The position numbers and the translations under genes were made by a program. A stretch of 64,000 nt of DNA from Ananas comosus (taxonomy: Eukaryota; Streptophyta; Magnoliopsida; Poales; Bromeliaceae): the NCBI RefSeq assembly GCF_001540865.1, contig NC_033627.1:10733338-10797337 (forward strand). The letters are read 5' to 3'. The first letter of the stretch is position 1. Every line of letters begins with the position of its first letter. The notes under the pieces were generated by a model. It did not search any database. It had not been told where the DNA came from and saw nothing but the letters and a program-made list of their open reading frames with translations. Below are positions 985 to 45,427 of the stretch, piece by piece.

Positions 985-2052
985 CTACTCTTCGTTGCTA
1001 GATTCCGAAACCGGCTCCTCCTCATCGTCCTCCTCCTCTTCGGGCCCATCGTCGTGGTGGTGGTGGTGGTCGTGGTGATGGTGGTGGTGGTGGTGGTGGA
1101 GGTGGTGGTGGTCTCCTCCCTCTTCGCCTCCGCCGCGGCGGCGCCGCTCCTCCGACTCGCAGCCCATGAGCTGCAGCTCAGCCCCCTTCTCGGCGGCGCC
1201 GCCGGAAGGGGCGGAGGGCGGCGGCTGCGCCTCCGGCGGGGGCGGGGCGGCGAGGCCTATGATCTGCGGCGGCGTCGGGATCGCCCAGAGCTGCGCCTGG
1301 CTGGAGGGCCCGGCGGCCACTCCCGGGGACGGCACCACCCACACCGGCAGCAGCCCCTGCGGCCCCGCCGCGATCGGCGCGAGCCCGCTCGACATCGAGA
1401 TCGCGCCGCCGCCGCCGCCCCCTCCCACCTGGAAAATCGAGTCCGCGACGATCGGATAATACGCCGCCGCCGCCGCCGCCGCCGGAGGCATCGGCATCGG
1501 CATCGGCGTCGGCATCGCAGGCGTCGGCGTCGTCGTCGTCGTCGCAGCGGCCCGCGTCGGCTGCAGCTTCTTGCGCCGCTTGGCAGCCGAATCCTCCCCT
1601 CCGCCTCCGCCTCCGCCGCCGCCCTCCAAGCCGGCGGCGGCCGACTGGGTGGGGATCTGGAGGGTTCCGTCGACGGTGGTGGCGATCGCCGGGACGGTCC
1701 CGGTGCCGGTGGCGGCGATGATGGCGGGCTCGGCCTGCTGCAGCAGCCAGCGGATGGTCTCCCCGTCGGACTTGTGGCCCAGCTCCCTCGTCAGCTGGAA
1801 TATCCGCGCCGCGCACACCGCCGGCATCCGGATGCGCCGCCCGCGGCCCTCCACCTTCGTGTGCCGGTCCCTGTTGCGCCCACCCCCCGCCTGCTGCTGC
1901 TGCTGCTTTCGTATCAGCTGCAGGCTCCCGAACAGCTCCATCGGCTCCGGCTTCGGCACGATGAACCTGTGCATCGGAACCGCCGCCGCCGTCCGAAGGA
2001 GCTCCTCCTCCTCCTCCTCCTCCTCCTCTTTATCCTGCCTCTCCAACTCCAT
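985..2052 (-). CDS. Class I TCP transcription factor, TCP9/TCP19-like
   Basis: Intronless 355-residue protein. The start is the first ATG (2052) after a CT/CA-rich leader. The class I (PCF) TCP domain spans about residues 62-120: basic region [17 protein letters not shown], helix-loop-helix segment [19 protein letters not shown], then the [21 protein letters not shown] signature. Class I proteins bind GTGGGNCCCAC-type sites in the nucleus and regulate cell proliferation and growth genes. Downstream SSGLAPIA and QGLLPVW-like segments resemble the TCP9/TCP19 branch. Low-complexity runs are unusually many: nine Glu near residue 9, five Gln near 50, a Gly run near 145, an Ala run, a His-rich stretch and an acidic C-terminal tail. 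Family and class are certain; the exact orthologue is inferred. Confidence 0.93.
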
Positions 2053-2075
2053 ATTATCACAACTGGTAACAACAG

Positions 2076-2122
<47 letters not shown>

Positions 2123-2500
2123 GCACACACTCTCGCTTCCTTTCTTTCTTTCTTTCTCTCTTTCTTTCTCCTGCGATAAAACCTAATATACAGTGGAGCC
2201 GCCCCGGGGTGAGAGGAGGCGTCCTCTCTCTCTATATCTCCTTGTTTTAGTCTTTTATTATCATCTATCCGCTGCTTCCTCTTTCCTTTCGCCCCGCCCT
2301 CGGTGGGGCCCACTCCTCTTTCGATCCAACGGCGCAGGAGCCACGCGGCCCCACCGGCTCGGGCACCCGAATCCCGAAAATTCTTCGGTGTAACGCTCGA
2401 ATGTGGCCCGGCTTGTGGGGCCCACGCGTGAACAGCTACGAGTGTATGCGCTCTACCTACAATATTGTGCTGGAATGTATGGTCCGTTTGGATCCACGTT
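2053..2500 (-). promoter_or_regulatory. TCP gene leader and promoter with TCP-binding motifs
   Basis: The DNA upstream of the ATG at 2052 contains two perfect class I TCP consensus sites, GTGGGGCCCAC at 2303-2313 and 2415-2425, plus a GGNCCCAC core at 2347-2354. Between the ATG and these sites lies a pyrimidine/CA-rich leader. The sites suggest self-regulation or cross-regulation by other class I TCPs. A TATA-like run near 2229-2236 on the minus strand is possible but weak. Confidence 0.55.
2076..2166. repeat. Compound microsatellite (CT)n-(AC)n-(CTTT)n
   Basis: (CT)n covers 2076-2100, (AC)n 2101-2130 with one G interruption, and (CTTT)n about 2143-2166. It lies in the presumed 5' untranslated leader of the TCP gene, so length variation could affect transcription or translation. 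Confidence 0.9.
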
Positions 2501-2536
2501 GCCATAAATATAACATAATTAAAAGAAAAACCTTCG

Positions 2537-2860
2537 CATACCACCGTGTGGTTTCACAGTCATTTTAGTGCCCCGTGGTTCAAAGTGTATTAATTTCACT
2601 AATTTTTTTATTATCAATTTTATTATTTTTTTTGTTAAATTTATGATAAAGTTAAAATTAAGAGATACTAAAGTGAATATTCGATAAATCTAAATGAACT
2701 ATCTGAAGTGTTTTGTATATAATTTAACAAAATATTAACGAAAAAACTGACGAAAAGATAAAAATGAAACTACAAGACACTAACTTAATACACTTTAAAC
2801 CGTAGGGTACTAAAGTGAGAAAGTACGAAACTACAGGGGTGGTGTTTGAAGTTTACCCTA
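2537..2860. mobile_element. MITE with long terminal inverted repeats, copy 1
   Basis: The left end (CCACCGTGTGGTTTCA, then a GTGGTTCAAAGTGTATTAA segment) is repeated inverted at the right end (CCACCCCTGTAGTTTCGTAC then GGTTTAAAGTGTATTAAG on the minus strand). The same family recurs at 15477-15790. There is no coding capacity. Exact ends and TSD are not resolved. Confidence 0.65.
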
Positions 2861-6831: not shown

Positions 6832-8513
6832 GGCCCCGTTTGGATACCTCTAAAAACGTAGCATAGTTAAACTATGCTACACTGGTAGGAAAATAATCCT
6901 ATGAATCGTTTGGAAGAAAAAAAAATGACGTAATTTTTGGAGTATAGTTATACTATACTCCAAAAAATGGAATAAACTTACAATCCACTTTAACCAAAGG
7001 AAAAAAATTCCACCATTTTGGGCTCCCAAAGATGTATCAATTTTTAAATTTTAAATTTCAACATAAAATTTTAGATTTCAAATTTTAAAATTTTAAAATT
7101 CAAATTTAATTTTGATTTTAAATTTCAAATTTTAAATTTCAAATTTCAAATTTCAAAAACTTCAAATTTTAAATTTTAAATTTCAAATTTCAAAAACTTC
7201 AAATTTCAAATTTCAAATTTCAAATTTCAAATTTCAAATTTCAAATTTCAAATTTCAAATTTCAAATTTCAACTTTCAAATTTCAAATTTCAAATTTCAA
7301 ATTTCAAATTTCAAATTTCAAATTTCAAATTTCAAATTTCAAATTTCAAATTTCAAATTTCAAATTTCAAATTTCAAATTTCAAATTTCAAATTTCAAAT
7401 TTCAAATTTCAAATTTCAAATTTCAAATTTCAAATTTCAAATTTCAAATTTCAAATTTCAAATTTCAAATTTCAAATTTCAAATTTCAAATTTCAAATTT
7501 CAAATTTCAAATTTCAAATTTCAAATTTCAAATTTCAAATTTCAAATTTCAAATTTCAAATTTCAAATTTCAAATTTCAAATTTCAAATTTCAAATTTCA
7601 AATTTCAAATTTCAAATTTCAAATTTCAAATTTCAAATTTCAAATTTCAAATTTCAAATTTCAAATTTCAAATTTCAAATTTCAAATTTCAAATTTCAAA
7701 TTTCAAATTTCAAATTTCAAATTTCAAATTTCAAATTTCAAATTTCAAATTTCAAATTTCAAATTTCAAATTTCAAATTTCAAATTTCAAATTTCAAATT
7801 TCAAATTTCAAATTTCAAATTTCAAATTTCAAATTTCAAATTTCAAATTTCAAATTTCAAATTTCAAATTTCAAATTTCAAATTTCAAAAAGTTCAAATT
7901 TCAAATTTCAAATTTCAAAAAGTTCAAATTTCAAATTTCAAATTTCAAATTTTAATTTTATTTTTAATTTTTAATTTTCAATCTTCAAAATTTAAATTTA
8001 AACTTAAATTTAAAATTTTAAATTTATAAATATGTAAATTTATAAATTATTAAATTTGAAATTTAAAATTTTAATTATAGATTTTTTAAATTTCAAAATT
8101 TAAAGTTTAAATGGTATACTTTAAGTTTTAAATTTTAAAGTTTCAAATTTCAAATTTGAAATTTGAAATTTCAAATTTCAAATTTCAAATTTAAAACATA
8201 AAATCTAATTTACTTTTTTAATTTTAAATTTTAAATTTTAATTTTATATTTTGAATTTTTAATTTTAATTTTTAGAATTTTATTTTTAAATTTTGAATTT
8301 TGAATTTTGAATTTTGAGTTTTGAATTTTGAATTTTAAAATTTTAGAAATTTAATTGTTATAAATACTGTGGAATTGTATGATATGTATCCAAACAACTT
8401 AAAAATGAAGCTGTGAAATTTTTTTGTAGTTACAGGATTTCGTATTTCATTTAGACCAAAACCATAGAATAAAAATTCTATGGAGTTTTTTAACTATGCA
8501 TCCAAACAGGGCC
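6832..8513. mobile_element. Tourist-like (PIF/Harbinger) MITE with satellite expansion
   Basis: The left terminus GGCCCCGTTTGGATAC and the right terminus (reverse complement GGCCCTGTTTGGATGC) form a TIR followed on both sides by ATAGTTAAA-type sequence. A 3-bp TAA duplication flanks it (6829-6831 and 8514-8516), as expected for PIF/Harbinger-type MITEs. The element is 1682 bp, several times the usual size for a Tourist-like MITE, because a 7-bp tandem array has expanded inside it. Confidence 0.85.
7201..7888. repeat. (AAATTTC)n tandem array, about 98 copies
   Basis: Near-perfect head-to-tail AAATTTC heptamers, with a visible variant near 7271. Degenerate AAATTTC/AAATTTT copies extend to about 7030 and 8330. 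The unit is not the plant telomere repeat. It lies inside the Tourist-like MITE. Confidence 0.97.
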
Positions 8514-15799: not shown

Positions 15800-16108
15800 C
15801 CAAGGGCCTTACCTTCGACATCGCCGTCGTCATAGAGCTCGTTGTCGTCATGGATAAAGAGAAAATGATATTAAAAATGATGAAACTCAATATTAAAATA
15901 TAAATTATATATATAATGGATAAAAAGGTCATTTTAACTTTTAGCTAGCTGTGGTTAGTTATTTTAAACTCATAGTTATTTAAATTTTGGTAATAGAAAG
16001 ATATATTTGCAACGGAAACATTTTTGAAACGACAAATTTGATAACTTAAGTTTTATAAGGAAATATTTTCTATTTGTTATCCTTGCATGTAGCCATATGC
16101 AATTACTC

Positions 16109-16169
<61 letters not shown>

Positions 16170-16420
16170 TTATATTACAATGTGATATATTGTATATATT
16201 AAGTATGAATATTAATTATAGTAATATGATATTATATGTATAGATTGTGATCGTATATGTGTATATAAGATGTTGTAATTATATGTATATTCAGTATAAT
16301 ACTGATATTTGTTAATGTTGATATTATTATGTATATTTAATACTATTAATATTAATTATTAATATCATGTATATTGATAGATATAGTATATTTGCTAATA
16401 TATATACTATGTATATATAC
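15800..16420. other. AT-rich DNA with (TA)n
   Basis: (TA)n microsatellite at about 16110-16165, then degenerate TATA/ATATT-rich sequence up to the retrotransposon LTR. No gene visible. Confidence 0.5.
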
Positions 16421-18550
16421 TGTATATCCTTATACATATATATATTATATATATATATATATTGTTGGAACACGTGCCTTTGCTGCAGCATGTTATCATC
16501 TTCCTTAAATAAATGAGAATCACCCGCACCTCTAATTAATTTCTCTTCCTCTTTTTATCTGGGACCTACGCAAGGAAGGAAAATCCGGTTGAAGTTGAGC
16601 AACGTCGACGATCGCGTCGGCGACTTGTTTGCGTTCGTACGTGACTCGGTGTTAGCCGTATCAATCGCGAGAGCCGGGCGGAGGATGTTTCGTCTCGATT
16701 CCTTGCCGGAATTAGGAGTCTCTGGTAGTGGTATACTCTCACTTCTCCATGGATCTCTCTACTCAAGCTTCATCAATCGACTAATGCTGATTCGCAGGAT
16801 CCTGGTTGTCGACTGTTAGTATTTCAGCTCGTACGCGACGAGAAGCATGCGATTCGACGAATTGGTTCGTTGGAACCTGAATTCGAGACGAACCAACGGA
16901 CTTACCACGCTCGAATTTGGAAAAGTGTTTGCTCTGTCGAAATTCCTTTTACTGAAGTTGCCGAACAGACTCTAAGTGTCGGATTGCTGATTCCGCATCG
17001 ACGCCGCTGTTACTGTTCTCGTAAGTCGAACGTGACGAAATTGCCTGCTAGATCGCTATACTTCAGAACGAAAGATTCTGGAGCGCCAAATCGCAACGTT
17101 GAGCGTTGCCCTGTCGAACCAGTAGTACTAGCTCGTTGCGACCAATTCAGAAGATGCGTTTCGCAGTCTCAACGTCGACGTTCTTCTGCCACTCCGCCGC
17201 ACGAGTCGCGAATTCAGCAAACCTGGCCTTGGACGTGACTTCGAATGAACTTCAGACCCTTGTTTACTAGAATTGGATAAGTTACATGGTCTGATTCGCT
17301 TCTATTCGCTACAGGAGTTGCTGAAGTTAGTATATCGTTTTACTCCTAATCATATTTTCGCATGTAAAATAATTCGACGCATTGAACCTATTCTACTCGA
17401 AGTCATGATTATATGTAGATTCAATCGACATTGGAGTATATGTAATAAATTAAGTAGTAATACAGTTTGACTGGAAATATTAGATATAAAACCTGCGATT
17501 ATGGACCTGTCCTTTTAACTGCTGATTAGCTCAGAGCCTAATTAAATGTACTTTCGCATAATCTCCAGACATACTCAGTAGTTTAAGATTAATTACCTCG
17601 TCGCTGTTGCGCCGATGGATCTTTAACATGATCGTTCATCGTTCCCCGCGTGTGTCTAAAGTGACGGGATCTCAGTATTGCCTTTTGGCGTTCAGATGTG
17701 CCGATGCACATACCTGTTGTCGGTTCAGAACCATTTTACTCGATTACTGTGACTTTGGCTTTTCAGAGCCTGTTTGAGCTCGACAGAGATACGCTGCATA
17801 CTCGGTTGGGTAGCGCCCACGAGTGCCACTCCGGAGTCAGGCTTTGTGCTTTCGCGTTGGTGTCGCTCATGCCAGTTGGACTTGCTCTCCACGGACCAGT
17901 TAGTGTGGATAGAGCCCGATAGTCGCAACGGGGCAGGGACGGGTGTATTCACAGTCCCGGGGACGGGTATGCTTACAGTCCCGATTGGATTGGGTCAGAT
18001 TTGACATTTCCTACAGTTGGTTAGTGTAGAGCATGATAGCGTAGTGATTGATAGCGGTAGAGTGTACTTCCTGCTTTTCCTACTATTTTTGCTCCCTTCT
18101 GTAGACTTAGTGGGTAGACCGATGTTGTTTTGGGCGGCACCCACTGAGGACTACCTGTTTTTACAGTAGTTCTCACGCTCAGTTGTTACTCCTGTTTTGC
18201 AGAGCCACAGGTGCCGGCTGCTGCATCTTCCGCCGACCAGAATCGAGGCAAGGACGTTGCGAGCTAGAGCCCTACCCGACAGTCAGAGCTAGAGGCTTTC
18301 CACTACTGCAGGTAGTTGTTTTGGAGTTTATGTACATAGTTGTTTAACTCGCCAGTGCGAGTAACCTTGTATTTTGGATTCTAGCTATGTATATGAAACT
18401 CAGTTATTTAGTTTTTTTGAGCAGCTCTATGCTACTGTTTGTAGTATCGTATTTCTACAGGTACTTTGACGTTTCGTATACAAGGAAAATTTCTTTGTAT
18501 ACGGCGGATTTGTCGGCGTGCCCGGGGAACGAGATATCCGGGGCGTGACA
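16421..18550 (+). mobile_element. 5' LTR of a chromovirus-type gypsy element
   Basis: Begins TGTATATCCTTATACATATA, matching the 3' LTR start at 23714 (TGTAGTATCCTTATACATATA), and ends GGGGCGTGACA just before the primer binding site: 2130 bp. Relative to the 3' LTR it is clearly diverged (my rough reading is four in five bases identical in the first 400). The LTR contains several open but unconserved frames, which I do not call genes. The TA-rich terminus may make the exact first base uncertain by a few positions. Confidence 0.8.
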
Positions 18551-18558
18551 GATTAAGT

Positions 18559-18570
18559 TGGTATCAGAGC
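18559..18570 (+). other. Primer binding site, initiator tRNA-Met
   Basis: TGGTATCAGAGC, complementary to the 3' end of initiator methionine tRNA, lies eight bases after the LTR end. This is the normal position and sequence for plant gypsy elements. Confidence 0.92.
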
Positions 18571-18847
18571 TTTGCTATAGGTCGTTGGGACCTAGGAAAC
18601 CCTAAGTTGGCAAACCTTAAGAAGCAAGACGCGAGAGGCGTCATTTAATTGCGAAGGTCAATGATTATTTGTTCTAATTCCTCCTAGAGTGGAGTGAGTG
18701 ACTGAAGGAGTTCCTGTTTTGGCCTGAAAAATTATGTTGGCTGCAGACGACATAATTTTGGAGGAAAACAGGGACCGCCTTCCCGACTTTCGTTGATTGG
18801 GTCTAGAGTGTTGCGTGTATCTGACCCCGACTTGTTTCTTTTTAGCT

Positions 18848-20440
18848 ATGTATCGTCGCCGAGGTCGACCGTCGTTGCGGGATCGTGCGGGACCTTCTGA
18901 GAGATCTGAGCAGATGGAGCAGAGTGCTCGGCAGGAGCAGAGGGACAGACCGGAGGTTAGTGCATCCCCTGTTATAGAGCCGAGTGCGCTACCTGAGGCT
19001 GGCGCATCCCCTGATCTGAGTGCACAGTTGGCTGCCCTGACTGAGGTGACGAGGCAGCAGGGGGAGTTATTGCAGAGGTTGTGTGAGAGGATAGCTCAGC
19101 CACCGAGTTCAGCACCGAGAGTACCAGAGTCGCCAGTGCCACCCCCGACTACTCCAGTGACCGCACCAGCTGCAGCAGTTCCTCCGTCGGCAGCAGTTCC
19201 AGTAGCGCCAGTTGCGCCTGCCAGGGGGCTTGTACCATTGACTGAGGCCGAGCAGGAGCGGTGGACGGAGAGGTTAGCTCGTTTCCGCCGATTTGATCCA
19301 CCGATCTTCGATGGTAGAGGCACTGAGGCCTGGGTTGTTGAGGGTTGGGTCAGTGCTATGGAGAGGTTATTCGAGGATCTGTACGTTCCAGAGGGGGAGC
19401 AGGTACCTTTGGGAGTACACTGTTTGTCAGGTGATGCACGTGACTGGTGGCGGAGAGTGAAGCGAGACCAGAGACTGGAGGCAGCGCAGCTGAGGTGGGA
19501 TGAGTTCTGTGGAATGCTGTATGGGATGTATTTTCCCAACAGCATGAAACAGAAGGTTGAGGAGGATTTGAAGAGGATCCAGCAGGGCGAGCGGACAGTT
19601 CAGGAGTATGTTCGGGAGTTTACTAGACTCCTGAACTGTGTTCCGTTCGTGGCCAGAGACGAGGCACATAGGGTCTACTTGTTCGAGCAGGGTTTGAGAC
19701 CCGACCTGTTCAGGTTCGTCAGGGCGCAGAGGTCGAGGACTTTGGATGCGTCCATTGAGCAGGCATTATGAGAGGAGAGAGGAGAGGTGTCGCTGTGGGA
19801 GAGAGCTCAGGGGCCGGGACAGAGTCAGGACAGGAAGCGCCCAGCTCCAGACGACGGAGGTCAGTCGAGTAGCAGGCGTCCGCCGAGGCCTCCACGATCG
19901 CGTTCACAGGGTCGTGGATTCTCGGGGCGTCAGCGATTCAGGGACTCTCGTCAGAGGGGACAGACAGAGAGGACGCCGCAGTGTGTGATCTGCGGAGGAC
20001 CACACTGGCCCAGACAGTGTGAGCAGAGGGAGGGCCGGTGCTACGGGTGTGGTGAGCCGGGACACATGAGGGCAGCTTGTCCCCGAGCAGCATCGCCAGC
20101 ACCATCATCAGCTTCAGCTCCACCAGCACCTCAGCAGACTTACAAAGCAGCACCGAGTTACCGCCAGGAGGATAGGTCGTCCATGCCGCGACAGAGTGAG
20201 CGGCGACAGCAGGCTCCGAGTGGCAGAGTCTATGCAGCTCAGGTAGAGGACTCTACAGCAGCCGACCGAGTAGTGGCAGGTATCACTTTGATTTCTGGCA
20301 TTAGAGTTCGCACTCTTTTTGATATTGGTGCATCGCATTCATTTGTTAGCCGGGCATTTGCATTGTTGCATGGTCTAGAGTTGGGCATTGTCACAGGCAC
20401 GAGAGGTGCAGATCCCGGACCATGTTTTACAGGTTGCTGA
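18848..20440 (+). pseudogene. Chromovirus gag and start of protease, interrupted
   Basis: The likely start is ATG 18848. An acidic and proline-rich N-terminus is followed by the retrotransposon gag domain (about 19285-19760; FDPPIFDGRG and LSGDARDWW). Two zinc knuckles follow at about 19980-20080: CVICGGPHWPRQC and CYGCGEPGHMRAAC. An in-frame TGA at 19769-19771 replaces a Trp codon. The aspartic protease begins near 20300, but its active site reads DIGAS instead of D-T/S-G-A. A frameshift near 20380-20410 breaks the frame from pol. In the wild type this polyprotein forms the virus-like particle. The copy is dead by at least three lesions. Confidence 0.92.
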
Positions 20441-21962
20441 GTGTTGTTGGTCGTGTCCGGTGCAGTTGGATTCGTGGGTCATGCCCGCAGACCTGTTGGA
20501 GCTAGGGCAGCTGCAGGACTTTGACGTTGTGCTCGGTATGGATTGGCTGGCGCGGTACTATGCTACTATTGATTGTGGAGCGAGGACTGTGACGTTCCGC
20601 GAACCAGGCCAGGAGGAGTTTACTTTTAGAGGCTGCAGGAGCACGCTGTTTGCCACCTCGATATCTTCGGCGAGGGCTCGACAGATGCTGAGTAGCGGGT
20701 GTATTGCTTACTTAGCGACAGTTGTGGAGGTACCTACGGCGGCACCGGGACTCGAGGATATTCCAGTAGTCCGCGAGTTTTCGGATGTATTTCCCCTTGA
20801 GTTAACGACATTGCCGCCGGAGAGGGAGATTGAGTTTGTGATTGATGTAGTTCCTGGAACTACACCAATCTCGAAGGTACCTTATCGGATGGCGCTGGCT
20901 GAGCTGAGAGAGCTAAAGGCACAGCTTCAGGATTTGATGGATAAAGGGTTTGTGAGACCCAGTGTGTCGCCTTGGGGAGCGCCAGTGCTATTTGTAAAGA
21001 AGAAGGATGGTTTGCTCAGGTTATGTGTGGATTACCGGGAGCTGAATAAAGTGACCATCAAGAATAAGTATCCCTTGCCGCGCATTGATGATTTGTTTGA
21101 TCAGCTGCAGGGATCTTATGTCTTCTCGAAGATTGATCTCCAGTCAGGTTACCACCAGTTGAGGGTGAGGGCCGAGGATGTACCCAAGACGGCTTTTCGG
21201 ACTCGGTACGGGCATTATGAGTTCACGGTGATGCCTTTTGGATTGACGAATGCCCCTGCCGCATTCATGGATTTGATGAACAGAGTGTTCAAGCCGTTCT
21301 TGGATAGGTTTGTGGTAGTCTTTATTGATTATATCTTGATTTACTCCCGGAGCGATGCTGAGCATGAGGAGCACTTGAGGATTGTGCTACAGCTTCTGCG
21401 AGAGAAGAAGTTGTATGCCAAGTTAAAGAAGTGCGAGTTTTGGTTACGGGAGGTCGCTTTCTTGGGCCACGTGATTTCAGCCGAGGGCGTAGCAGTGGAC
21501 CCAAAGAAGATTGAGGCGATTCGGGATTGGCCGAGACCGACGACGGTGACTGAGGTACGGAGCTTCCTGGGACTGGCAGGATATTACCGTCGGTTTGTGG
21601 AAGGCTTTGCGAAGCTTTCCACACTCCTCACACGCTTGACGCGGAAGGGGATTCGTTTTGTCTGGAGCGACGACTGTCAGAGGAGCTTTGACGAGTTGAG
21701 ACTGAGGTTGACGTCGGCTCCTATCCTTGCTCTTCCGGTGATAGGGGATGGATTCGTGATCTACAGTGATGCATCGCACAGTGGACTTGGTTGCGTGCTG
21801 ATGCAGCATGATAGGGTGATTGCTTATGCTTCACAGCAGTTAAAGGATTATGAGAAGAATTACCCTACGCATGATTTGGAGCTTGCCGCGGTGGTTTTTG
21901 CTTTGAAGCTCTGGCGGCATTACTTGTACGGCGAGCACTGCGAGGTATTCACCGATCATTAA
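20400..21962 (+). pseudogene. Chromovirus reverse transcriptase and RNase H, inactivated
   Basis: Protease tail ([18 protein letters not shown]) is followed by [72 protein letters not shown] and [13 protein letters not shown]. The catalytic loop reads [10 protein letters not shown]: the second aspartate expected after FID is a tyrosine codon at 21330-21332. RNase H follows ([28 protein letters not shown]). It ends prematurely at TAA 21960-21962, where a Lys codon is expected, and the same frame continues afterwards. The order protease-RT-RNase H-integrase is that of Ty3/gypsy elements. Confidence 0.93.
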
Positions 21963-22016
21963 AGTCTCAAGTATCTGTTCACACAGAAGGAGCTGAATCT
22001 GAGGCAGCGCCGGTGG

Positions 22017-23666
22017 TTGGAGTTACTGAAGGACTATGACATTAGTATTCAGTATCATCCCGGCAGGGCGAATGTGGTGGCAGATGCGTTGAGCAGGAAG
22101 TCAGTGCAGAGCCTGAGTTTGAGGATTACTGAGCAGAGACCCCTACTCGAGGAGCTACGGCGGCTGGGACTCGAGATAGTACCCCCTCGGTCTACGGCGA
22201 GGCTGATGTCTCTAGTACTACTGCCCACTCTGTTGGATAGGATCCGAGAGAAACAGAGTGGAGATCCGTACTTGGTGAGGATTAGAGAGCAGCTAGACAG
22301 GGGGCAGGCTGAGGGTTTTGCTTTGGACAGTTCGGGAGTACTACGGTACAGGGACCGACTGTGTGTGCCTGTGGATCCGGAAGTTCGAGCGGATATTCTG
22401 AGAGAGGCTCATTGTTCCCCATATACGGTTCACCCTGGGGGAACCAAGATGTATAAGGATCTTAAGGCACAGTTCTGGTGGCCTGGAATGAAGAGGGACA
22501 TTGGCAGATATGTGGCTCAGTGTTTGACTTGCCAACAGGTGAAGGCCGAGCATCAGGTGCCTGCTGGCAAGCTTCAGAGTCTGCCAGTTCCCGAGTGGAA
22601 GTGGGAGCACATCACGATGGACTTCGTCGTTGGATTGCCTAGAGCGCAGGGTGGCTACGACGCGATTTGGGTGATAGTGGACAGACTGACCAATTCTGCT
22701 CACTTCCTACCGGTTCAGACTACCTGGTCCAGGGAGAGACTTGCGCAGCTATACTTGGATGAGATCGTTAGGCTGCACGGCGTGCCAGTGTCGATTGTAT
22801 CAGACAGAGACCCGAGGTTTGTATCCCAGTTTTGGAGGAGTCTTCAGACCGCCTTGGGTACACAGCTACATTTTAGCACGGCGTTTCACCCATAGACAGA
22901 TGGTCAGTCAGAGCGGACCATTCAGACTCTAGAGGACATGCTGAGGGCATGTGTCCTGGACTTTGGAGGAGGGTGGTATCGATATTTGAGACTGGTTGAG
23001 TTTGCGTACAACAACAGCTATCAAGCGAGCATCCAGATGGCTCCGTTTGAGGCGTTGTATGGACGCAGATGTCGATCCCCCCTATTTTGGAGTGATGTGG
23101 GTGAGCGGAAGACACTTGGACCAGAGATTCTACTTGAGGCTGAGGAAAAGGTGAGAGTCGTTCGACGACACCTTTTGACAGCACAGAGCCGACAGAGGAG
23201 CTACGCCGATATCAGGAGACGAGACTTAGAGTTTCAGGTTGGAGATCATGTTTTTCTCAAAGTCTCGCCGTCCAGAGGGATACGCCGTTTTGGAGTACGT
23301 GGAAAGCTTAGTCCACGGTTTGTTGGCCCTTTCGAGGTATTAGAGCGTATCGGACCGGTGGCTTACAGGATAGCTCTACCCCCGCGACTTGCTGGCATCC
23401 ACGATGTTTTTCACGTCTCAGCATTGAGGAGATACGTTTTCGACCCCTCTCACGTGATCGACTTCACTCCACTCGAGATTGGCGAGGACCTGAGATACGA
23501 GGAGCGACCCGTGCGGATTCTTGCTCCCGAGACGAAAGAATTGCGCAACCGGGTCATCCCGTATGTAAAGGTGCAGTGGAGCAACCACGAGGAGCAAGAG
23601 GCGACTTGGGAGCCAGAGACCGTGATGAGGGAGTCTTACCCCGACCTGTTCGTTGCCCCGTCTTGA
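22017..23666 (+). pseudogene. Chromovirus integrase with C-terminal chromodomain
   Basis: Same frame as RT. The end of the RNase H/linker ([16 protein letters not shown]) precedes an HHCC zinc finger ([15 protein letters not shown] ... [11 protein letters not shown]). The integrase core follows with catalytic Asp in MDFVVGLP, Asp in VSDRDPRF and Glu in GQSERTIQTLEDM. An in-frame TAG at 22893-22895 interrupts it just before TDGQSERT, where Gln is expected. The C-terminus has a GPFEVLERIGPVAYRIALPP module and a chromodomain-like end (VIPYVKVQW, EATWEPETVMRESYPDLF), characteristic of the Tekay/Del chromovirus lineage. Such chromodomains can direct insertion to marked heterochromatin. Confidence 0.92.
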
Positions 23667-23702
23667 GGTATGTTTTAAGTTTCGAGGACGAAACTTTTTG
23701 TA

Positions 23703-23713
23703 GTGGTGGAGAA
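23703..23713 (+). other. Polypurine tract
   Basis: GTGGTGGAGAA lies directly before the 3' LTR start TGTAGTATCC, the position expected for the plus-strand primer. A related GTGGGGGAGGA precedes the LTR at 24877. Confidence 0.8.
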
Positions 23714-24356
23714 TGTAGTATCCTTATACATATATATATTTATATATATGTATATATTGTATGGATGCCACGTTGCCTTTGCATGCATGGCATACTTATC
23801 CATTTCCTTAATTAAGAGATGCACCCGCACCTCCTTAATTAATTTTCCTTCCTCTCTTTTTTCTTGAGCCGTACGCAAGGACGAGGAGAACCCGGTTGAA
23901 GTTTGGAGCAACGTCGACGTCGCGTCGCGGAGCCGTTCGAGCGCGCACGTGTTACCGTAGCATCGCGAGGAGGCCGGGCGAGGGAGTGTTTTCATCGTTC
24001 TCGACGCCGTGCCGGAATTGGAGTCGCTGGTTGAGGTGGGTAATCTCTCATTCCTCCATGGATTTCTTCTCTACTTCAAGCTTCATTCAATTCGAGCTTA
24101 AGTGCTGATTCGCAGGATCTTGTCGTCGACTGTTAGTATTTCAGCTCGTACGCGACGTAGGAGCATCGGATTTCGACGAGATTTGGTTCGTTGGAACCGG
24201 GACTTCGAGACGAATCCATAGGATCCTTACTCACCCAATTTGGAAAAGGTTTGCTCTGTCGAAATTCCTTTTTACTGAGTTGCTGTTTGCCGAGCAGACT
24301 CTGAAGTGCTGATTGCTGATTCCAGCATCGACCCGCCGTGTTTTACCTAGTTCTCT
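23714..24356 (+). mobile_element. 3' LTR, partial, cut by assembly gap
   Basis: TGTAGTATCC start after the polypurine tract. From about 23787 it matches 28641-29210 almost base for base (visible differences are few), whereas it is much more diverged from the 5' LTR at 16421. It stops at the N run. Confidence 0.85.
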
Positions 24357-24479
24357 NNNNNNNNNNNNNNNNNNNNNNNNNNNNNNNNNNNNNNNNNNNN
24401 NNNNNNNNNNNNNNNNNNNNNNNNNNNNNNNNNNNNNNNNNNNNNNNNNNNNNNNNNNNNNNNNNNNNNNNNNNNNNNN
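24357..24479. other. Assembly gap, 123 N
   Basis: Run of undetermined bases between an LTR and a pol fragment. The two sides are not contiguous in any one element. Confidence 0.99.
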
Positions 24480-24825
24480 ACGTTTTGTTGGCCCTTTCGA
24501 GGTATTGGAGCGTATCGGACCGGTGGCTTACAGGATAGCTCTACCCCCGCGACTTGCTGGCATCCATGATGTTTTTCACGTCTCAGCATTGAGGAGATAC
24601 GTTTTCGATCCCTCTCATGTGATTGACTTCACTCCACTTGAGATTGGCGAGGATCTAAGATACGAGGAGCGACCGTTGCGGATTCTTGCTTGGGAGACGA
24701 AAGAATTGCGCAATCGGGTCATCCCGTATGTGAAAGTGCAGTGGAATAATCATGATGAGCGGGAGGCGACTTGGGAGTCTGAGACGGTGATGAGGGAGGC
24801 CTATCCCTTTTTGTTTGATGCCTGA
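24480..24825 (+). pseudogene. Chromovirus pol C-terminal fragment (chromodomain end)
   Basis: An uninterrupted frame from the gap to a TGA stop reads RFVGPFEVLERIGPVAYRIA to EATWESETVMREAYPFLF, homologous to the end of the integrase at 23310-23660 with scattered substitutions. It belongs to a second element whose 5' part is lost in the gap. Confidence 0.9.
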
Positions 24826-24876
24826 GCAAAGGTATGTTTGAGTTTCGAGGACGAAACTTATTGTAGTGGGGGAGGA

Positions 24877-26167
24877 TGTAGTATCCTTTAAATATACATC
24901 CATATATATATATATGGATGCCACATGCCCCATGTATATACATATATATATAGGTGGATGCCACGTGCCCCCATGCATAGTTATCCATGCATTTAATTAA
25001 GGGAAGCAACCTAAACCTCTCTAATTAGTTTTTCTTTCTCTCTTTCGTGTGGAGTGGAGAGCCGAAGCGGACGAGCCGCGTAGAGGTAGCCGCGAAGCTC
25101 GGATTCGCCGTCGACGGCGTGCCGCGGAGTCGCTCGAGCTTATTTTCGACGTCGTGTTGCTGCGAGGAGGCCGGGCGAGTGCGGCTTTTCGCCATCCTTG
25201 ATGTCGTGCTGGTTCTAAGGTATTTTTTTTTTTTGAAATGCTTTATCAGTGGGCATTCCTCCAATTACTTCAATTCCATCAATTTCGAGCTCGGGTGCTA
25301 CTGCTGCAGATTTCTGCGTCGACTGTCGGTGTTTTGGCTCGTACGCGACGTAGGAGCATCGGATTTCGACGAGACTTGGTTCGTTGGATTCGGGACTTCG
25401 AGAGGAATCCACGAAGCCCTCACTTGCCAGATTTGGTGAAGGTTAGCTTGGTCGAATCTCATTCCTACTCTACTGCTGCAAATTCTGGACTGAATCGGTA
25501 ATTGGTTGGTGTAGAGCTTGGAGTTAGCGCGATTCTTGAGATCGAAGTACTACGATCGACCCAGCAGGTGGAGCCACAGCTGTGAGAGTGTTTCGCTGCC
25601 GGGGATTTGCGTGCGAGGTGGGTTACATCGGCTTTACTCCTAAGTTCTTATTGGTCGACATGTATAGATTTTGATTTCGGTAATTAATGTTAGCTCAAAT
25701 TCATGGATTAATTGTAGATTGTGAAATCTGAATTTTGGAGCATGTTTTATAAATTAAGTAGATTATACATGTTGGACTTGAAAATTGAATTAGGAGAAAA
25801 CCTGCGATTTAGACCTGTCACCTGTATAAACTGCCTGATTTAGCTCTAGGAGCCGTTAGAAAATTGTACTGTCGCAATTTCTTCGAGACGAGTACTCCAG
25901 GTAGTCTAGAATGTATTTACACTCATACTGGTTCGCCGAGTGGATTTTTACAGGGTCGTTCAGGTTGTTTCGGACTGTTGGGTGCCGTCAGAGTTGACGG
26001 TGGACCCGTATCGCCTTTTTGGCGTCAGACTGTGCCGAGGGCACGTTACCTGTTGGTTGTTAGATCAGTTTGAGTCGATTACTTGACTTTGGCTAGTTGG
26101 AGCCTGATTGAGCTCGACAGAGATACGCTGCATACTCGGTTGGGTAGCGCCCACGAGTGCCACTCCG
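24877..26167 (+). mobile_element. LTR of a related chromovirus subfamily, truncated by gap
   Basis: Begins TGTAGTATCCTTTAAATATA after GTGGGGGAGGA and contains LTR landmarks shared with the 5' LTR (GCTCGTACGCGACGTAGGAGC; GAGCTCGACAGAGATACGCTG). It is diverged in the 25040-25200 part. It ends at GCCACTCCG exactly where the N run starts. Confidence 0.82.
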
Positions 26168-26267
26168 NNNNNNNNNNNNNNNNNNNNNNNNNNNNNNNNN
26201 NNNNNNNNNNNNNNNNNNNNNNNNNNNNNNNNNNNNNNNNNNNNNNNNNNNNNNNNNNNNNNNNNNN
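26168..26267. other. Assembly gap, exactly 100 N
   Basis: A round number, the usual placeholder for a gap of unknown size. Its right edge is also the left edge of the reversed block. Confidence 0.99.
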
Positions 26268-28267
26268 TGAGGAGGACCAGACCAAGCGCCTTGCAGTGTC
26301 AGGAGCGAGGTGTTAGTTATCATCGTATCATGGCGCGGTCGGTTAGGTATGGCTCGTGTTGCAGCTTCAGGACGTCGACGGGATCGTGGTTGTCCAGACG
26401 CCCGTACTGGGTGCTTAGGTTGACGTGGCCTGTGCTGGTTGTTGTGAGTCGTTGGACATTTTGTACCAGGCCCTAGACGTGGAGAGCACGGACACTGTTA
26501 CGGGGATGGAGATCTGGTACGTTGTTACGTTTACGAGCCGATTGTTTCCTTACGCTACGTGGTCATAGTTTTTCTCACGCTTGAGATTACGGTCTTTAGT
26601 TTCACTATGGACGGTGATGAGCCAGCCGACGACATCTCAGGAGATGGTCTCGACGTATCTGAGACGGTGAGCCTCGGACGACAGCGGCGAGTGGGACAGC
26701 GCCGTACCTGCTGGATAGGAGGACCGCCGTTGAGCCACGACGAAACATTCGGACGACTCCACGACCACCTCGACTTCGACTACTACCACGACCGCTACGA
26801 CGAGCCCCTGTTCGACGGGAGTACACAGGGCCGACTGGTGTGGGCATCGTGGCCGGGAGGGAGACGAGTGTGACAGACCCGGTCACACCAGGAGGCGTCT
26901 AGTGTGTGACGCCGCAGGAGAGACAGACAGGGGAGACTGCTCTCAGGGACCTAGCGACTGCGGGGCTCTTAGGTGCTGGGACACTTGCGCTAGCACCTCC
27001 GGAGCCGCCTGCGGACGATGAGCTGACTGGAGGCAGCAGACCTCGACCCGCGAAGGACAGGACTGAGACAGGGCCGGGGACTCGAGAGAGGGCGTCGCTG
27101 TGGAGAGGAGAGAGGAGGGTATTACGGACGAGTTACCTGCGTAGGTTTCAGGAGCTGGAGACGCGGGATTGCTTGGACTTATCCAGCCCAGAGTTTGGGA
27201 CGAGCTTGTTTATCTGGGATACACGGAGTAGAGACCGGTGTTTGCCTTGTGTCAAGTCCTCAGATCATTTGAGGGCTTGTATGAGGACTTGACAGGCGAG
27301 TGGGACGACCTAGGAGAAGTTTAGGAGGAGCTAGAAGACAAAGTACGACAACCTTTTTATGTAGGGTATGTCGTAAGGTGTCTTGAGTAGGGTGGAGTCG
27401 ACGCGGCGGTTGTCAGGGACCAGGGCGGAGCGAGAGGCGGTGGTTAGTGCACGTAGTGGACTGTTTGTCACATGAGGGTCACCATGGACGAGGGGGACAC
27501 CTTGCTTGTCTAGGAGTTTATTGGAGAGGTAGCGTGACTGGGTAGGGAGTTGTTGGGTCCGGAGTCACGGCGACGGTAGCTTCTAGCCACCCAGTTTAGC
27601 GGCTTTTGCTCGATTGGAGAGGCAGGTGGCGAGGACGAGCCGGAGTCAGTTGCCATGGCCGGGGGATCGTCCGCGTTGACCGCGATGACCTTGACGACGG
27701 CTGCCTCCTTGACGACGTCGACCACGCCAGTGACCTCATCAGCCCCCACCGTGACCGCTGAGACCATGAGAGCCACGACTTGAGCCACCGACTCGATAGG
27801 AGAGTGTGTTGGAGACGTTATTGAGGGGGACGACGGAGCAGTGGAGTCAGTCCCGCCGGTTGACACGTGAGTCTAGTCCCCTACGCGGTCGGAGTCCAGC
27901 GCGTGAGCCGAGATGTTGTCCCCCACGTGAGCGGAGGCCAGACAGTGAGACGAGGACGGCTCATGAGACGAGGACGGCTCATGAGACGAGGTAGACAAGT
28001 CCAGAGAGTCCTTCAGGGCGTGCTCCAAACATAGTGTAAAGACCTCCTCAAACGTCTGTCGGAACCCATGTGTCGACGTAAAATCGTGCCGCAAGGTGGG
28101 TGTCTGTCTACCAGTCAGTCTCGCCTGGTATGTCTGAGATCTCCTGTACGACTCCCGTACGCAGGACCTAAAACCTCCTCCCACCATAGCTGTACACTTT
28201 GACCAACTCAAACGCATGTTGTTGTCGATAGTTTATTCGTAAGTCTACCGAGGCAAACTCCGCAACA
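26268..28267. other. Block of 2000 bases written in reverse without complementing
   Basis: From 26268 to about 28024 the text matches positions 20619 down to about 18890 of the chromovirus when read backwards with no base complemented. For example, 27029-27088 equals 19801-19860 reversed at all 60 positions. From about 28022 to 28267 it matches 22813 to about 23058 complemented but not reversed, with constant offset. Reversing the whole 2000-base string once turns the first part into normal sense gag-protease and the second into normal antisense integrase. The last un-reversed base (20619) then meets 28268 (20620) with no base missing. Reading frames in this block have no biological meaning. 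Confidence 0.95.
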
Positions 28268-28370
28268 TTACTTTTAGAGGCTGCAGGAGCACGCTGTTTG
28301 CCACCTGGATATCTTCGGCGAGGGCTCGACAGATGCTGAGTAGCGGGTGTATTGCTTTCTTAGCGACAGT
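28268..28370 (+). mobile_element. Chromovirus pol fragment, sense
   Basis: Matches 20620-20723 (TACTTTTAGAGGCTGCAGGA to CTTAGCGACAGT) with very few differences. It is the direct continuation of the reversed block once that block is un-reversed. Confidence 0.9.
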
Positions 28371-28640
28371 CTCGCGACGCCCTTGCCTCGATCCTGATCC
28401 GCGGAAGGCGCAGCAGCCGAAACCTGTAGCTCTGCAAAACAGGGGTAACAACTGGGCGTGAGAACTACTATAAAAACAAGTAGTCCTCAGTGGGTGCCGC
28501 CCAAAACAACATCAGTCCACCCACTAAGTCTACAGAAGGGAGCAAGAATAGTAGTAAATGCAGGAATAAAGTCTACTGCTATCAAACACTATACTATCAT
28601 TCTCTACACTAACCAACTGTAAAAATGTCCAATCTGACCC
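28371..28640 (-). mobile_element. Chromovirus LTR 3' part, antisense fragment
   Basis: Reverse complement of about 17994-18263 of the 5' LTR (CTTGCCTCGATCCTG.TC; CAGTGGGTGCCGCCCAAAACAAC). A normal inverted fragment with moderate divergence. Confidence 0.85.
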
Positions 28641-30044
28641 ATGGCATGCTTATCCATTTCCTTAATTAAGAGATGCACCCGCACCTCCTTAATTAATTTT
28701 CCTTCCTCTCTTTTCTCTGGAGCCGTACGCAAGGACGAGGAGAACCCGGTTGAAGCTTGGAGCAACGTCGACGTCGCGTCGCGGAGCCGTTCGAGCGCGC
28801 ACGTGTTACCGTAGCATCGCGAGGAGGCCGGGCGAGGGAGTGTTTTCGTCGTTCTCGACGCCGTGCCGGAATTGGAGTCGCTGGTTGAGGTGGGTAATCT
28901 CTCATTCCTCCATGGATTTCTTCTCTACTTCAAGCTTCATTCAATTCGAGCTTAAGTGCTGATTCGCAGGATCTTGTCGTCGACTGTTAGTATTTCAGCT
29001 CGTACGCGACGTAGGAGCATCGGATTTCGACGAGATTTGGTTCGTTGGAACCGGGACTTCGAGACGAATCCATAGGATCCTTACTCACCCGATTTGGAAA
29101 AGGTTTGCTCTGTCGAAATTCCTTTTTACTGAGTTGCTGTTTGCCGAGCAGACTCTGAAGTGCTGATTGCTGATTCCAGCATCGACCCGCCGTGTTTTAC
29201 CTAGTTCTCTGTGTAGGAGTGTCGAAACGTGACGAAATTTGACGTGCTAGATTCGCGACTTCGAGACGAAGATTCTGAGCCCAAGATCGCGATTTTTGGA
29301 GCAGGTTTGCCCTGTCGAACCCTAGTTTTACTAGGCTGCTGTTTGCCGAGCAGATTTCAGAGATGCTGTTTCGCAGGTTCCAGCGTCGACGTTTCGTATT
29401 CTGGCCCATTCTCTGCGCAGGAGCGTCGGAATTCAGCGAAACCTGGGCCATTGGATTCGTGACTTCGAGATGAAGCTTCAGGACCCTTGTTTGCTGAATT
29501 TGGATAAGGTTAGCTTGGTTGGATTTAACGCTTTCTTCGCTGCCAGGAGTTGCTTGAGAGGTAGGTTACATCGGTTTTTACTCCTAAGTTCATATTCGTC
29601 GGCATGTATAATTTTCGACCTTTGGATACTCTATTCTAGCTCGAATTCATGGATTATATTGTAGATTGCAAATCTGAATTTGGAGCATGTGGTAATAAAT
29701 TAAGTAGGTTATACATGTTGGACTTGGAAATTGAATTAGGAGAAAACCTGCGATTTGGACCTGTCACTTGTTTAAACTGCCTGATTTAGCTCTAGGAGCC
29801 GTTATTAAATTGTACTGTCGCAGTATCTTCGAGACGAGTACTCCAGGTAGTTTAGATTACATTTACGCTCGTGCTGGTGCGCCGAGTGGATTTTTACAGG
29901 ATCGTTCAGGTTGTTCCCGACTGGTGGGTGCCGTCAGAGTTGACGGTGGACCCGTATCGCCTTTTTGGCGTCAGATTGTGCCGAGGGCACATTACCTGTT
30001 GGTGGTTAGACCAGTTTGAGTCGGTTACTTGACTTTGGCTTTTC
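28641..30044 (+). mobile_element. Chromovirus LTR, sense, missing its first ~70 bp
   Basis: Starts abruptly at ATGGCATGCTTATCC, equivalent to 23787 in the 3' LTR, and remains nearly identical to it up to the first gap. It then continues through the LTR body to about 30044 (CTTGACTTTGGCTTTTCC). It contains three related units of about 200 bp. Confidence 0.85.
28958..29530 (+). repeat. Three ~200-bp tandem units inside the LTR
   Basis: Units begin near 28958, 29162 and 29363. Each carries GCTGATT/GCTGTTTCGCAGG-type sequence, GTAGGAGCATCGGA/TGTAGGAGTGTCGAAA/CAGGAGCGTCGGAA, then GACTTCGAGA(C/T)GAA and a GGTTTGC.CTGTCGAA-type segment. The copies are diverged. Confidence 0.7.
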
Positions 30045-30049
30045 CTAAT

Positions 30050-30785
30050 AGGCTATAATCAAAACAAATGGGTCTAACTGGTCCTACAACTAAAACTTAC
30101 GTGCCCTTCACACAATCCGATGCAAAAATAGCAAACTGGGTCCACCGTCAACCGCGACGGCACCCGACAGTGCGGAATAGTCTACATACTACTGTAAAAT
30201 AAGCTCGGCATTCCAGCACGAGCGTAAACTCATCCTACACTAATCTGGATATCCATCGCATACTAACAGTGACGATACAAAAGAACCACAGCTCTTAATG
30301 CTAAATTTGGTAATTTTCAGAAAGTGACAGTGTAGAATCGAAATGTTTTCTCCTAAGTCAATTCCAAGTCCAATATGTAAAATTATACTACTAGCTTAAC
30401 TCCAAATTTAGATGTTAACTCTAATCCATGAATTTGAGTACTAGGAAGAAAACCCAAAGATACATGTCAATGACATAAAAACTTAGATGGTATTCCCGCG
30501 ATTTCGGTAAACTTCAACCCACCTCGAAAAGCTCGTCCAACTACGGCGAGAAGTCGAAAGGAGAGGAAATCACGCGCTCGCCCGGCCTCCAACGACGCAA
30601 CTGCGAGGTACGCACACTCGTACGACTCTCCGAATCGACGTCGAAATTTTTTCCGAGCTCGAGCCACTACCTCTACCAAGCATACGACCAAAAACTAGAG
30701 AGAAAAATGAGAAAATTATCCTCTCAAGTGGATAGATATGAGGGGGAGTAGGTTGTGTGGATAACCACCAACCAAAATGACAATA
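30050..30785 (-). mobile_element. Diverged chromovirus LTR, antisense
   Basis: The reverse complement reads GTCGGGTGCCGTCGCGGTTG, GACGGTGGACCCAG and GAGGCCGGGCGAGCGCGTGA, matching LTR landmarks with many substitutions. It faces the preceding sense LTR, forming a large inverted repeat with an axis near 30045. The terminal TGTAGTATCC is not found, so the copy is truncated. Confidence 0.75.
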
Positions 30786-30985
30786 CTACCCTTCACCAAC
30801 TCAACAAGCTAGCTGGAGTATCGATATCCGATTTGGTTACTGGTACTCGGCCTCTCAGCCTGCAAGTTCTCACCCAGGGTACCGGTATCAGCCCGATACT
30901 GTACCGGTATTGTACCGGTACTCAGCATTAAATTGGCACAATCCGANGAAAGAGAGAGAGAGAGAGAGGAGGAGGAGGAGGAGGA
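30786..30985. repeat. Short (ACCGGTAC)-rich patch and (GA)n/(GAG)n
   Basis: GTACCGGTAT-type words recur at 30880-30930, then an n at 30947 and (GA)n-(GAG)n at 30950-30985 abutting the next MITE. No gene visible. Confidence 0.6.
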
Positions 30986-31520
30986 GGCTTCTATGTTTTC
31001 GAAAGTACAGAAGCCTTCGTGCTTGTAAGTTGTTTTTGATAATAAAATATTCGATTTGATGATCGGTTTCGGTAGATATGATCTACAGTGTTGGACCTAT
31101 TTAAAAATCAAATTTCATAATTTTTTTATTTCGTTTGTCTAGTAAATAAATAATCTCAAAATGAACGGTTGAAAATAAAAATTTTATAAAAATATTAATA
31201 AAAGACTCAAATTTCAAATTGGGAGTATTGATCTTACTCTTAATGTTAAGTAGAATTTTTATTAAAGGGTCATGTAATTTAGATTGTTTTACATCGTCAA
31301 CTTACAAACGTATCATATCGGCGGTTAAAATAGTCATTGTTGAAACTTTGATCACTTGGTAAATAATATCAAAAAGTTATGAAATTTTATTTCTAAATAA
31401 TAATAATAGCATAAATCATGCATAATAGAACCGATCGCCAAATCGAATGTTGTATCAGCGTAAACAACTTACAAATACGAATGTCTCCGTACTTTTAAAA
31501 AAAGTTTTTATAAGAACCTC
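30985..31520. mobile_element. Long-class foldback MITE
   Basis: Homologous to 8635-9180: GGCTTCTATGTTTTCGAAAG at the left and GTACTTTTAAAAAAAGTTTTTATAAGA at the right, inner arms CTTGTAAGTTGTTTTTGATAATAAAATATTCGA. Abuts (GA)n on the left. Confidence 0.75.
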
Positions 31521-44800: not shown

Positions 44801-44847
44801 TGTTTTTTTTTTTTTTTTTTNTTTTTTTTTTTTTTTTTTTTTTTTTT
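44801..44847. repeat. Poly(T) tract upstream of PEX16
   Basis: Nearly 46 T with one n at 44821, some 85 bases upstream of the PEX16 start codon. Its length is probably unreliable. Confidence 0.9.
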
Positions 44848-45427
44848 GTTAACGCCGTGGGAATATGAGTTGGTCGGAAAGGGCAAACGCCGTTGGGAAT
44901 CTTGGGATCAAGTTCGTGTACCGCGTCCATGAAAGTGTACAGCTGGGATTAAAAATAGAGTTTTATAAATTTACTAAAAATTATAATTTTTTAATATGCT
45001 TTTACTAATAGCCCAATTTTAAAAGTAGGAAAAGGCGCGGTGCGTGTAATTTTTTAATCATAAAATTATCTCCATATTTGCACAGTATTAGTAAAAAAAA
45101 CTTTACAAGACACATGGCGTATAATGCTGCGCGTTTCTTAAAGCGATCCAACGATTAAAAAGTCCTAAACATGAATGCTTCTATGCTTTTAAAAGTGAAG
45201 GAGCTCGACTTTTAACTTTTGATATCTCTTCAAAATTATCAATACTATTTTTAATACTATAAATTAATAATTTATATAAAAAATATCCTCCATCAGGTGG
45301 ATTATTGTGTACCTAGTTGCATGTAATTGTAAATAGGGATAATAGCTTATATGTTTTTCAAAACTTAAAAATTATCTTATTTATTTTTTGAGAATCAAGA
45401 TATTCTTGTTGATTTTAAAAAATTTCG
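44848..45427. other. Non-coding DNA
   Basis: No gene or clear element. The PEX16 promoter would begin here, but I see no diagnostic motif beyond general AT-richness. Confidence 0.35.

What the first reader, a model, noticed from the sequence alone, without database searches (positions are those of the whole stretch)
26268..28267. Exactly 2000 bases are reversed without complementation
This block cannot be aligned to the local chromovirus in sense or antisense, but aligns at high identity when read backwards as a plain string. 27029-27088 against 19801-19860 reversed is identical at 60 of 60 positions, and 26427-26486 against 20401-20460 reversed also matches throughout. Left boundary: the edge of a 100-N gap. 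Right boundary: un-reversing makes chromovirus position 20619 meet 28268, which is position 20620, with nothing lost. The length is 28267-26268+1 = 2000. Polymerases, recombination and inversion all preserve strand polarity, so no known process makes a mirror copy. The round length and gap-edge position point to a software or editing artefact (reverse without complement).
Basis: seen in the sequence. Interest (0 to 1): 0.97.

Follow-up and report, generated by a model that had tools for sequence, protein, structure and literature searches.

The report
Backwards contig ends beside assembly gaps
In this plant genome assembly (apparently pineapple), 2000 letters beside a gap are written backwards without swapping strands, and ten other gap-edge stretches checked show the same fault, likely from a gap-filling program that wrote its added bases in the wrong order, which would mislead anyone reading those places.

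Summary
The plain reversal of 26268-28267 aligns to the local chromovirus (1678 of 1737 aligned bases); the reverse complement does not, and the printed string finds only itself. Scaffold C2836 of the same assembly holds a near-identical stretch in normal polarity: 5 differences in 2000, no gaps, running on into 28268-30946. Only end point 28267 fits: 18 mismatches of 4679, against at least 1429 for the 14 other ends tried.

The block is not alone. As a mirror probe it matches 32 other places. I fetched edges for 13 of those blocks; an N run was seen beside 10. Seven were bounded on both sides, and each, read in reverse, runs on into its neighbour. Of the eight bounded blocks, this one included, four are exactly 2000 bases; the others are 675, about 1116, 1166 and 5488.

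So this is a systematic assembly artefact, not biology. In each bounded block the base at the gap is the one that belongs next to the intact contig, as if an extension had been written nearest base first. That software step is inferred. My paper searches found no report of it.

The parts
26268..28267 (.). Mirrored block: 2000 bases in reversed order without complementation; it reads as neither strand
26168..26267 (.). 100-N run that bounds the block on its left
28022..28267 (.). Sub-part of the block that, read backwards, is the reverse complement of 22813-23058 (integrase region): an older, normal-polarity inverted junction carried along in the mirroring
28268..30946 (+). Rest of the same contig in normal polarity, up to the single N at 30947; 13 differences in 2679 from C2836
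18883..20619 (+). Local normal-polarity copy (gag and protease region of the chromovirus) that the block mirrors at 96.6%
22813..23058 (+). Local normal-polarity counterpart of 28022-28267 (integrase region)

Best explanation
Window 26268-28267 is a 2000-base contig end written in reverse order without complementation, likely because a gap-filling or contig-extension step stored an outward extension nearest base first and never turned it round. Shown: the mirror relation; the exact edges; the near-identical normal-polarity stretch on another scaffold; similar blocks beside N runs of 1, 25 or 100 bases elsewhere in the assembly; and, in the eight bounded blocks, that the base touching the gap is the one that belongs next to the intact contig. 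Inferred: a program grew the contig outward into the gap, kept the bases in order of growth and wrote that string left to right; blocks with the gap on their right would be such contigs placed in minus orientation; the repeated 2000 would be a length limit of one setting or round, not of all, since one block is 5488 bases. The program is not identified.
For: Mirror relation and exact edges. Normal-polarity stretch on C2836, 5 differences in 2000, continuing with 13 in 2679. The held genome has the same mirrored letters: L001 and L029 are identical to the window over 26768-30710 and 25664-27663. Mirror probe: 32 other places. N run seen beside 10 of 13 blocks whose edges were fetched. Seven of the 13 bounded on both sides with continuity after reversal; for the six scored at nine offsets each, the score peaks at the stated edge. 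N positions forecast for C16 and C21 (note) were found 8 and 13 bases off; the C14 N position fell exactly where reckoned for a 2000-base block (reckoned before the fetch but noted only after).
Against: No reads, assembly logs or earlier contig releases were seen, so the extension step is not shown. 18 of the 32 rows were not examined, many of them short and 70-76% identical. No N run was reached for 3 of 13 blocks. Of four blocks tested for exactly 2000 one fitted, two were shorter, one longer. The interiors of several blocks (C13, C18, C21, C14, C22) were only sampled. The C20 edge at its N rests on a weak 36-base match. One normal N junction is known, C2836:66959, with natural sequence on both sides, so not every N has a mirrored edge.
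Confidence: 0.85

Rival explanations
1. A scaffolding or patching script turned contig flanks round: it cut a flank beside a gap, reversed it where it should have reverse-complemented or left it, and put it back in place.
For: Gives the same printed result; four of eight bounded blocks are exactly 2000 bases, as a fixed flank would be.
Against: The other four bounded blocks are 675, about 1116, 1166 and 5488 bases, which a fixed flank does not explain.
Confidence: 0.12
2. The letters were altered only in the window or only in the copy of the genome held here, and not in the public assembly.
For: The round length 2000; the public record itself was not seen.
Against: The held genome has the same letters and mirrored blocks of varied length on at least ten other chromosomes' contigs.
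Confidence: 0.02
3. A real biological process made a mirror copy of DNA.
For: None beyond the printed sequence.
Against: No known polymerase or recombination process reverses base order without changing strand (established knowledge). The edges coincide with assembly N runs, and the stretch exists in normal polarity at 1995 of 2000 bases.
Confidence: 0.001

Closest known systems
Assembly inversion error (contig placed in the wrong orientation)
   Same: A stretch is turned round at a contig edge by an assembly step.
   Different: A wrong-orientation contig is reverse-complemented and aligns on the minus strand; this block does not align on either strand until reversed as a string.
Mirror repeats (H-DNA type)
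   Same: Two stretches related by mirror symmetry.
   Different: Those known to me are short and often homopurine (recalled). Here 1737 aligned bases of mixed coding sequence mirror each other at 96.6%.
Ty3/gypsy chromovirus (plant LTR retrotransposon)
   Same: The mirrored letters are a gag/protease segment plus an integrase fragment of this family.
   Different: As printed the block encodes nothing of the kind (0 of 30 relatives match); the mirroring is not a property of the element.

Membership tests
Assembly artefact: reversal without complementation | Aligns only as a plain reversed string | tested here: met
   plain reversal 96.6% over 1706 bases; reverse complement no match; forward only itself
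Assembly artefact: reversal without complementation | Edge coincides with an assembly gap | tested here: met
   Left edge at the 100-N run; N run beside 10 of 13 other blocks fetched
Assembly artefact: reversal without complementation | The true locus exists in normal polarity | tested here: met
   C2836 minus 65716-61038, 18 differences in 4679; allele or duplicate not told apart
Assembly artefact: reversal without complementation | Raw reads contradict the printed order | not testable with these tools
   No reads available
Gap-filling or contig-extension error | Block length and position trace to an extension in the assembly log or an earlier release | not testable with these tools
   No logs or earlier releases; the two genome papers asked for are not held
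Chromosomal or assembly inversion | Aligns as reverse complement | tested here: not met
   no reverse-complement match for the block as printed
Ty3/gypsy chromovirus (the local copy) | gag, protease, RT/RNaseH and integrase in Ty3/gypsy order, with a chromodomain | tested here: inconclusive
   Domains and order met in 18797-23666; the chromodomain match is below its cut-off, 20.9 against 25.1 bits

The most novel reading that the evidence does not exclude
A widely used crop reference genome carries a systematic mirror fault at its gap edges, touching on the order of one percent of the copies of its repeats; it comes from an extension program that writes one side's added bases nearest base first, and the same program has left the same fault in other published assemblies, where ordinary aligners cannot see it.
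Probability: 0.4. Interest if true: 0.65.

Novelty: not a real feature. Interest (0 to 1): 0.5.

Why it matters
As biology it is nothing. As a data fault it matters: mirrored sequence aligns to nothing, so it would pass as unique sequence, hide real repeat copies, spoil genes at gap edges and defeat read mapping and primers. A plain-reversal search is a simple test for it. Rough extent for this one family: the mirror probe gave 32 first-look candidates and a normal-polarity probe 1640 (the probes differ in length and the counts are lower bounds).

Tried and rejected
True inversion: rejected, no reverse-complement match. Window-only alteration: rejected, the held genome has the same letters. 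One fixed length of 2000 for all blocks: rejected by 675, about 1116, 1166 and 5488.

Mirrored reading frames in protein databases: the 141-aa printed frame 26448-26870 had 37 candidates, none at E <= 0.001. Rfam: 0 matches at gathering scores.

A possible second block on C7, 10684086-10684230 or -10684231, right of a single N: read backwards, 118 bases match C7:10682840-10682957 at 97.5%, 73 of 73 outside the simple repeats. I keep it tentative and out of the counts. As a probe in printed polarity it has 43 non-self matches; most cover only the simple repeat, but 11 reach query base 98 or beyond at 75-82%. The opposite-polarity control did not complete.

Composition screen of 21 N runs, leaving out the 100-N run of the finding: flanks with P < 0.05 on the right and left are 5 and 2 of 20 (order 3), 6 and 3 of 20 (order 4), 6 and 5 of 20 (order 5); combined P at order 4 is 1e-5 and 0.0175. 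A screen only; the side difference fades at order 5. A mirror search of 294 kb of C7 found, outside the block and the tentative one with its relatives, only two self-overlapping low matches and one 53-base pair at 85%.

Papers: ten answered searches, listings only and several capped; eight sought the fault itself (all but 16 and 111) and no listed title or abstract describes it. Of PMC8081667 and PMC8774480 I saw passages; the latter mentions chimeric regions and large gaps in the F153 assembly, not reversed letters. Two pineapple genome papers asked for by recalled DOI are not held.

Full report
Observation. The plain reversal of 26268-28267 aligns with the local element copy at 18883-20619, 1678 of 1737 aligned bases. 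The printed string finds only itself and the reverse complement finds nothing. In a whole-window mirror search all six rows involve this block. The left edge is the 100-N run 26168-26267. The right edge is exact by continuity: 88 of 90 for end 28267 against 36-49 of 90 for 15 other ends. The two 60-base checks in the finding are 60 of 60 each.

Independent checks. A strand-symmetric Markov score of printed minus reversed is lowest over this block at orders 2, 3 and 4. It stays negative when the model is trained outside 16000-31000 or only on other parts of the element. The longest stop-to-stop frame is 141 codons as printed and 588 in the plain reversal. Of 30 proteins found with the local gag/protease frame, 19 of them named Ananas, 0 match the print and 30 match its plain reversal. 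The 59 differences from the local copy include 41 transitions; of the 55 in the gag frame, 29 fall on third codon positions and 27 are silent. This looks like ordinary divergence that came before the letters were reversed.

The genome. The window lies at C7:10733338-10797337 of an assembly of 381,958,007 bases in 3128 contigs. The length of contig C5, 15,024,279, equals the contig length listed for an NCBI Ananas comosus protein (P0010), so this is very probably the NCBI pineapple assembly; the cultivar F153 is recalled from its size. A point against: a search with the TCP frame of the window listed no Ananas protein among the best 120 of 4282.

The decisive comparison. Scaffold C2836 of the same assembly carries the stretch in normal polarity. 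Its minus strand 65716-63717 equals the plain reversal of the block with 5 differences in 2000 and no gaps, and 63716-61038 continues into 28268-30946 with 13 in 2679. Moving the assumed end by one to seven bases raises the mismatches from 18 to at least 1429 of 4679 (14 other ends). Whether C2836 is an allele or a duplicate was not settled. The held genome itself has the mirrored letters at C7.

It recurs. The printed block as a probe matches 32 other places. I fetched edges for 13 blocks, which account for 14 of the 32 rows; 18 rows were not examined. An N run was seen beside 10: C5 at 11574993 and at 6870172, C13 at 6031966, C18 at 5927978, C16 (100 N), C21 (25 N), C14 at 10816579, C22 at 3151392, C20 at 4203584 (there on a weak 36-base match) and C1 at 20101326. 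For three (near C13:9989049, C1:24498503, C6:4625430) none was reached. With the window's block, eight have the N run on the left and three on the right.

Lengths. Seven of the 13 were bounded on both sides: C5 2000, C18 2000, C14 2000, C13 5488, C16 675, C21 1166 and C22 about 1116. The interiors of C13, C18, C21, C14 and C22 were sampled, not read through. Others have at least 2134 bases (C5:6870173) and 2167 (C20), if each is one block. For six blocks the joint of reversed gap edge and natural neighbour was scored at nine offsets and peaked at the stated edge in each. N positions for C16 and C21 were forecast in the notebook and found 8 and 13 bases away. The C14 position was reckoned before its fetch but noted only afterwards; it was met exactly. 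Of four blocks tested for exactly 2000, one fitted, two were shorter and one longer.

Mechanism. In each of the eight bounded blocks the base next to the gap is the one that belongs next to the intact contig. A program that grows a contig outward and stores the bases nearest first, then writes the string without turning it, gives exactly this. A contig placed in minus orientation would put the block on the other side of the gap. N stubs of 1, 25 or 100 bases beside the blocks fit unfinished gap filling. The program, the meaning of 2000 and the order of steps are inferred. A script that reversed flanks is the main rival, weakened by the varied lengths. Not every N junction is affected: C2836:66959 has natural sequence on both sides.

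Extent. A normal-polarity probe gave 1640 first-look candidates (40 scored), the mirror probe 32 (32 scored). The probes differ in length and the counts are lower bounds, so about 2% is a rough figure for this family only.

Known or new. Eight searches of the held paper library for such a fault (listings, some capped) showed no description of it. The library lacks most subscription papers and the genome paper itself. The feature is not biological; its value lies in exposing a hidden and testable kind of error.

Noticed in passing
C7:10684086-10684231 (L017:749-894), about 49 kb left of the window: Possible second mirrored block directly right of a single N; 118 bases match C7:10682840-10682957 only when read backwards. 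Polarity control not answered, so tentative.
   Followed up: partly
C7:10886747-10887578: The 832 bases between two single Ns score mirror-like by composition from both sides (right flank of 10886746 P 0.0003, left flank of 10887579 P 0.0007, order 4).
   Followed up: no
44822-45045 and onward: Right flank of the single N at 44821 scores mirror-like by composition (P 0.003-0.004), but poly-T runs across the N as in normal sequence. The search with its reversal did not complete.
   Followed up: partly
28022-28024: Inside the block, an integrase fragment in inverted orientation meets the gag start with a 3-base overlap of the two alignments; C2836 has the same junction, so the retrotransposon copy was rearranged (or misassembled) before the mirroring.
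   Followed up: partly
26268-30946 and C2836:61038-65716: The same 4679-base stretch is present twice in the assembly at 18 differences, once on C7 and once on an unplaced scaffold; it may be an allele kept apart or a duplicate.
   Followed up: no
C7:10728338-10733337: A run of exactly 5000 N ends at the base before the window starts; it may be a gap or a withheld stretch.
   Followed up: no
7136-8029: A tandem repeat is open in several frames and reads as repeated FKFQISN.
   Followed up: no
985-2553, minus strand: Frame with a TCP transcription factor domain (PF03634, 90 bits); no Ananas protein among the 120 listed relatives, which is odd for a pineapple window.
   Followed up: partly
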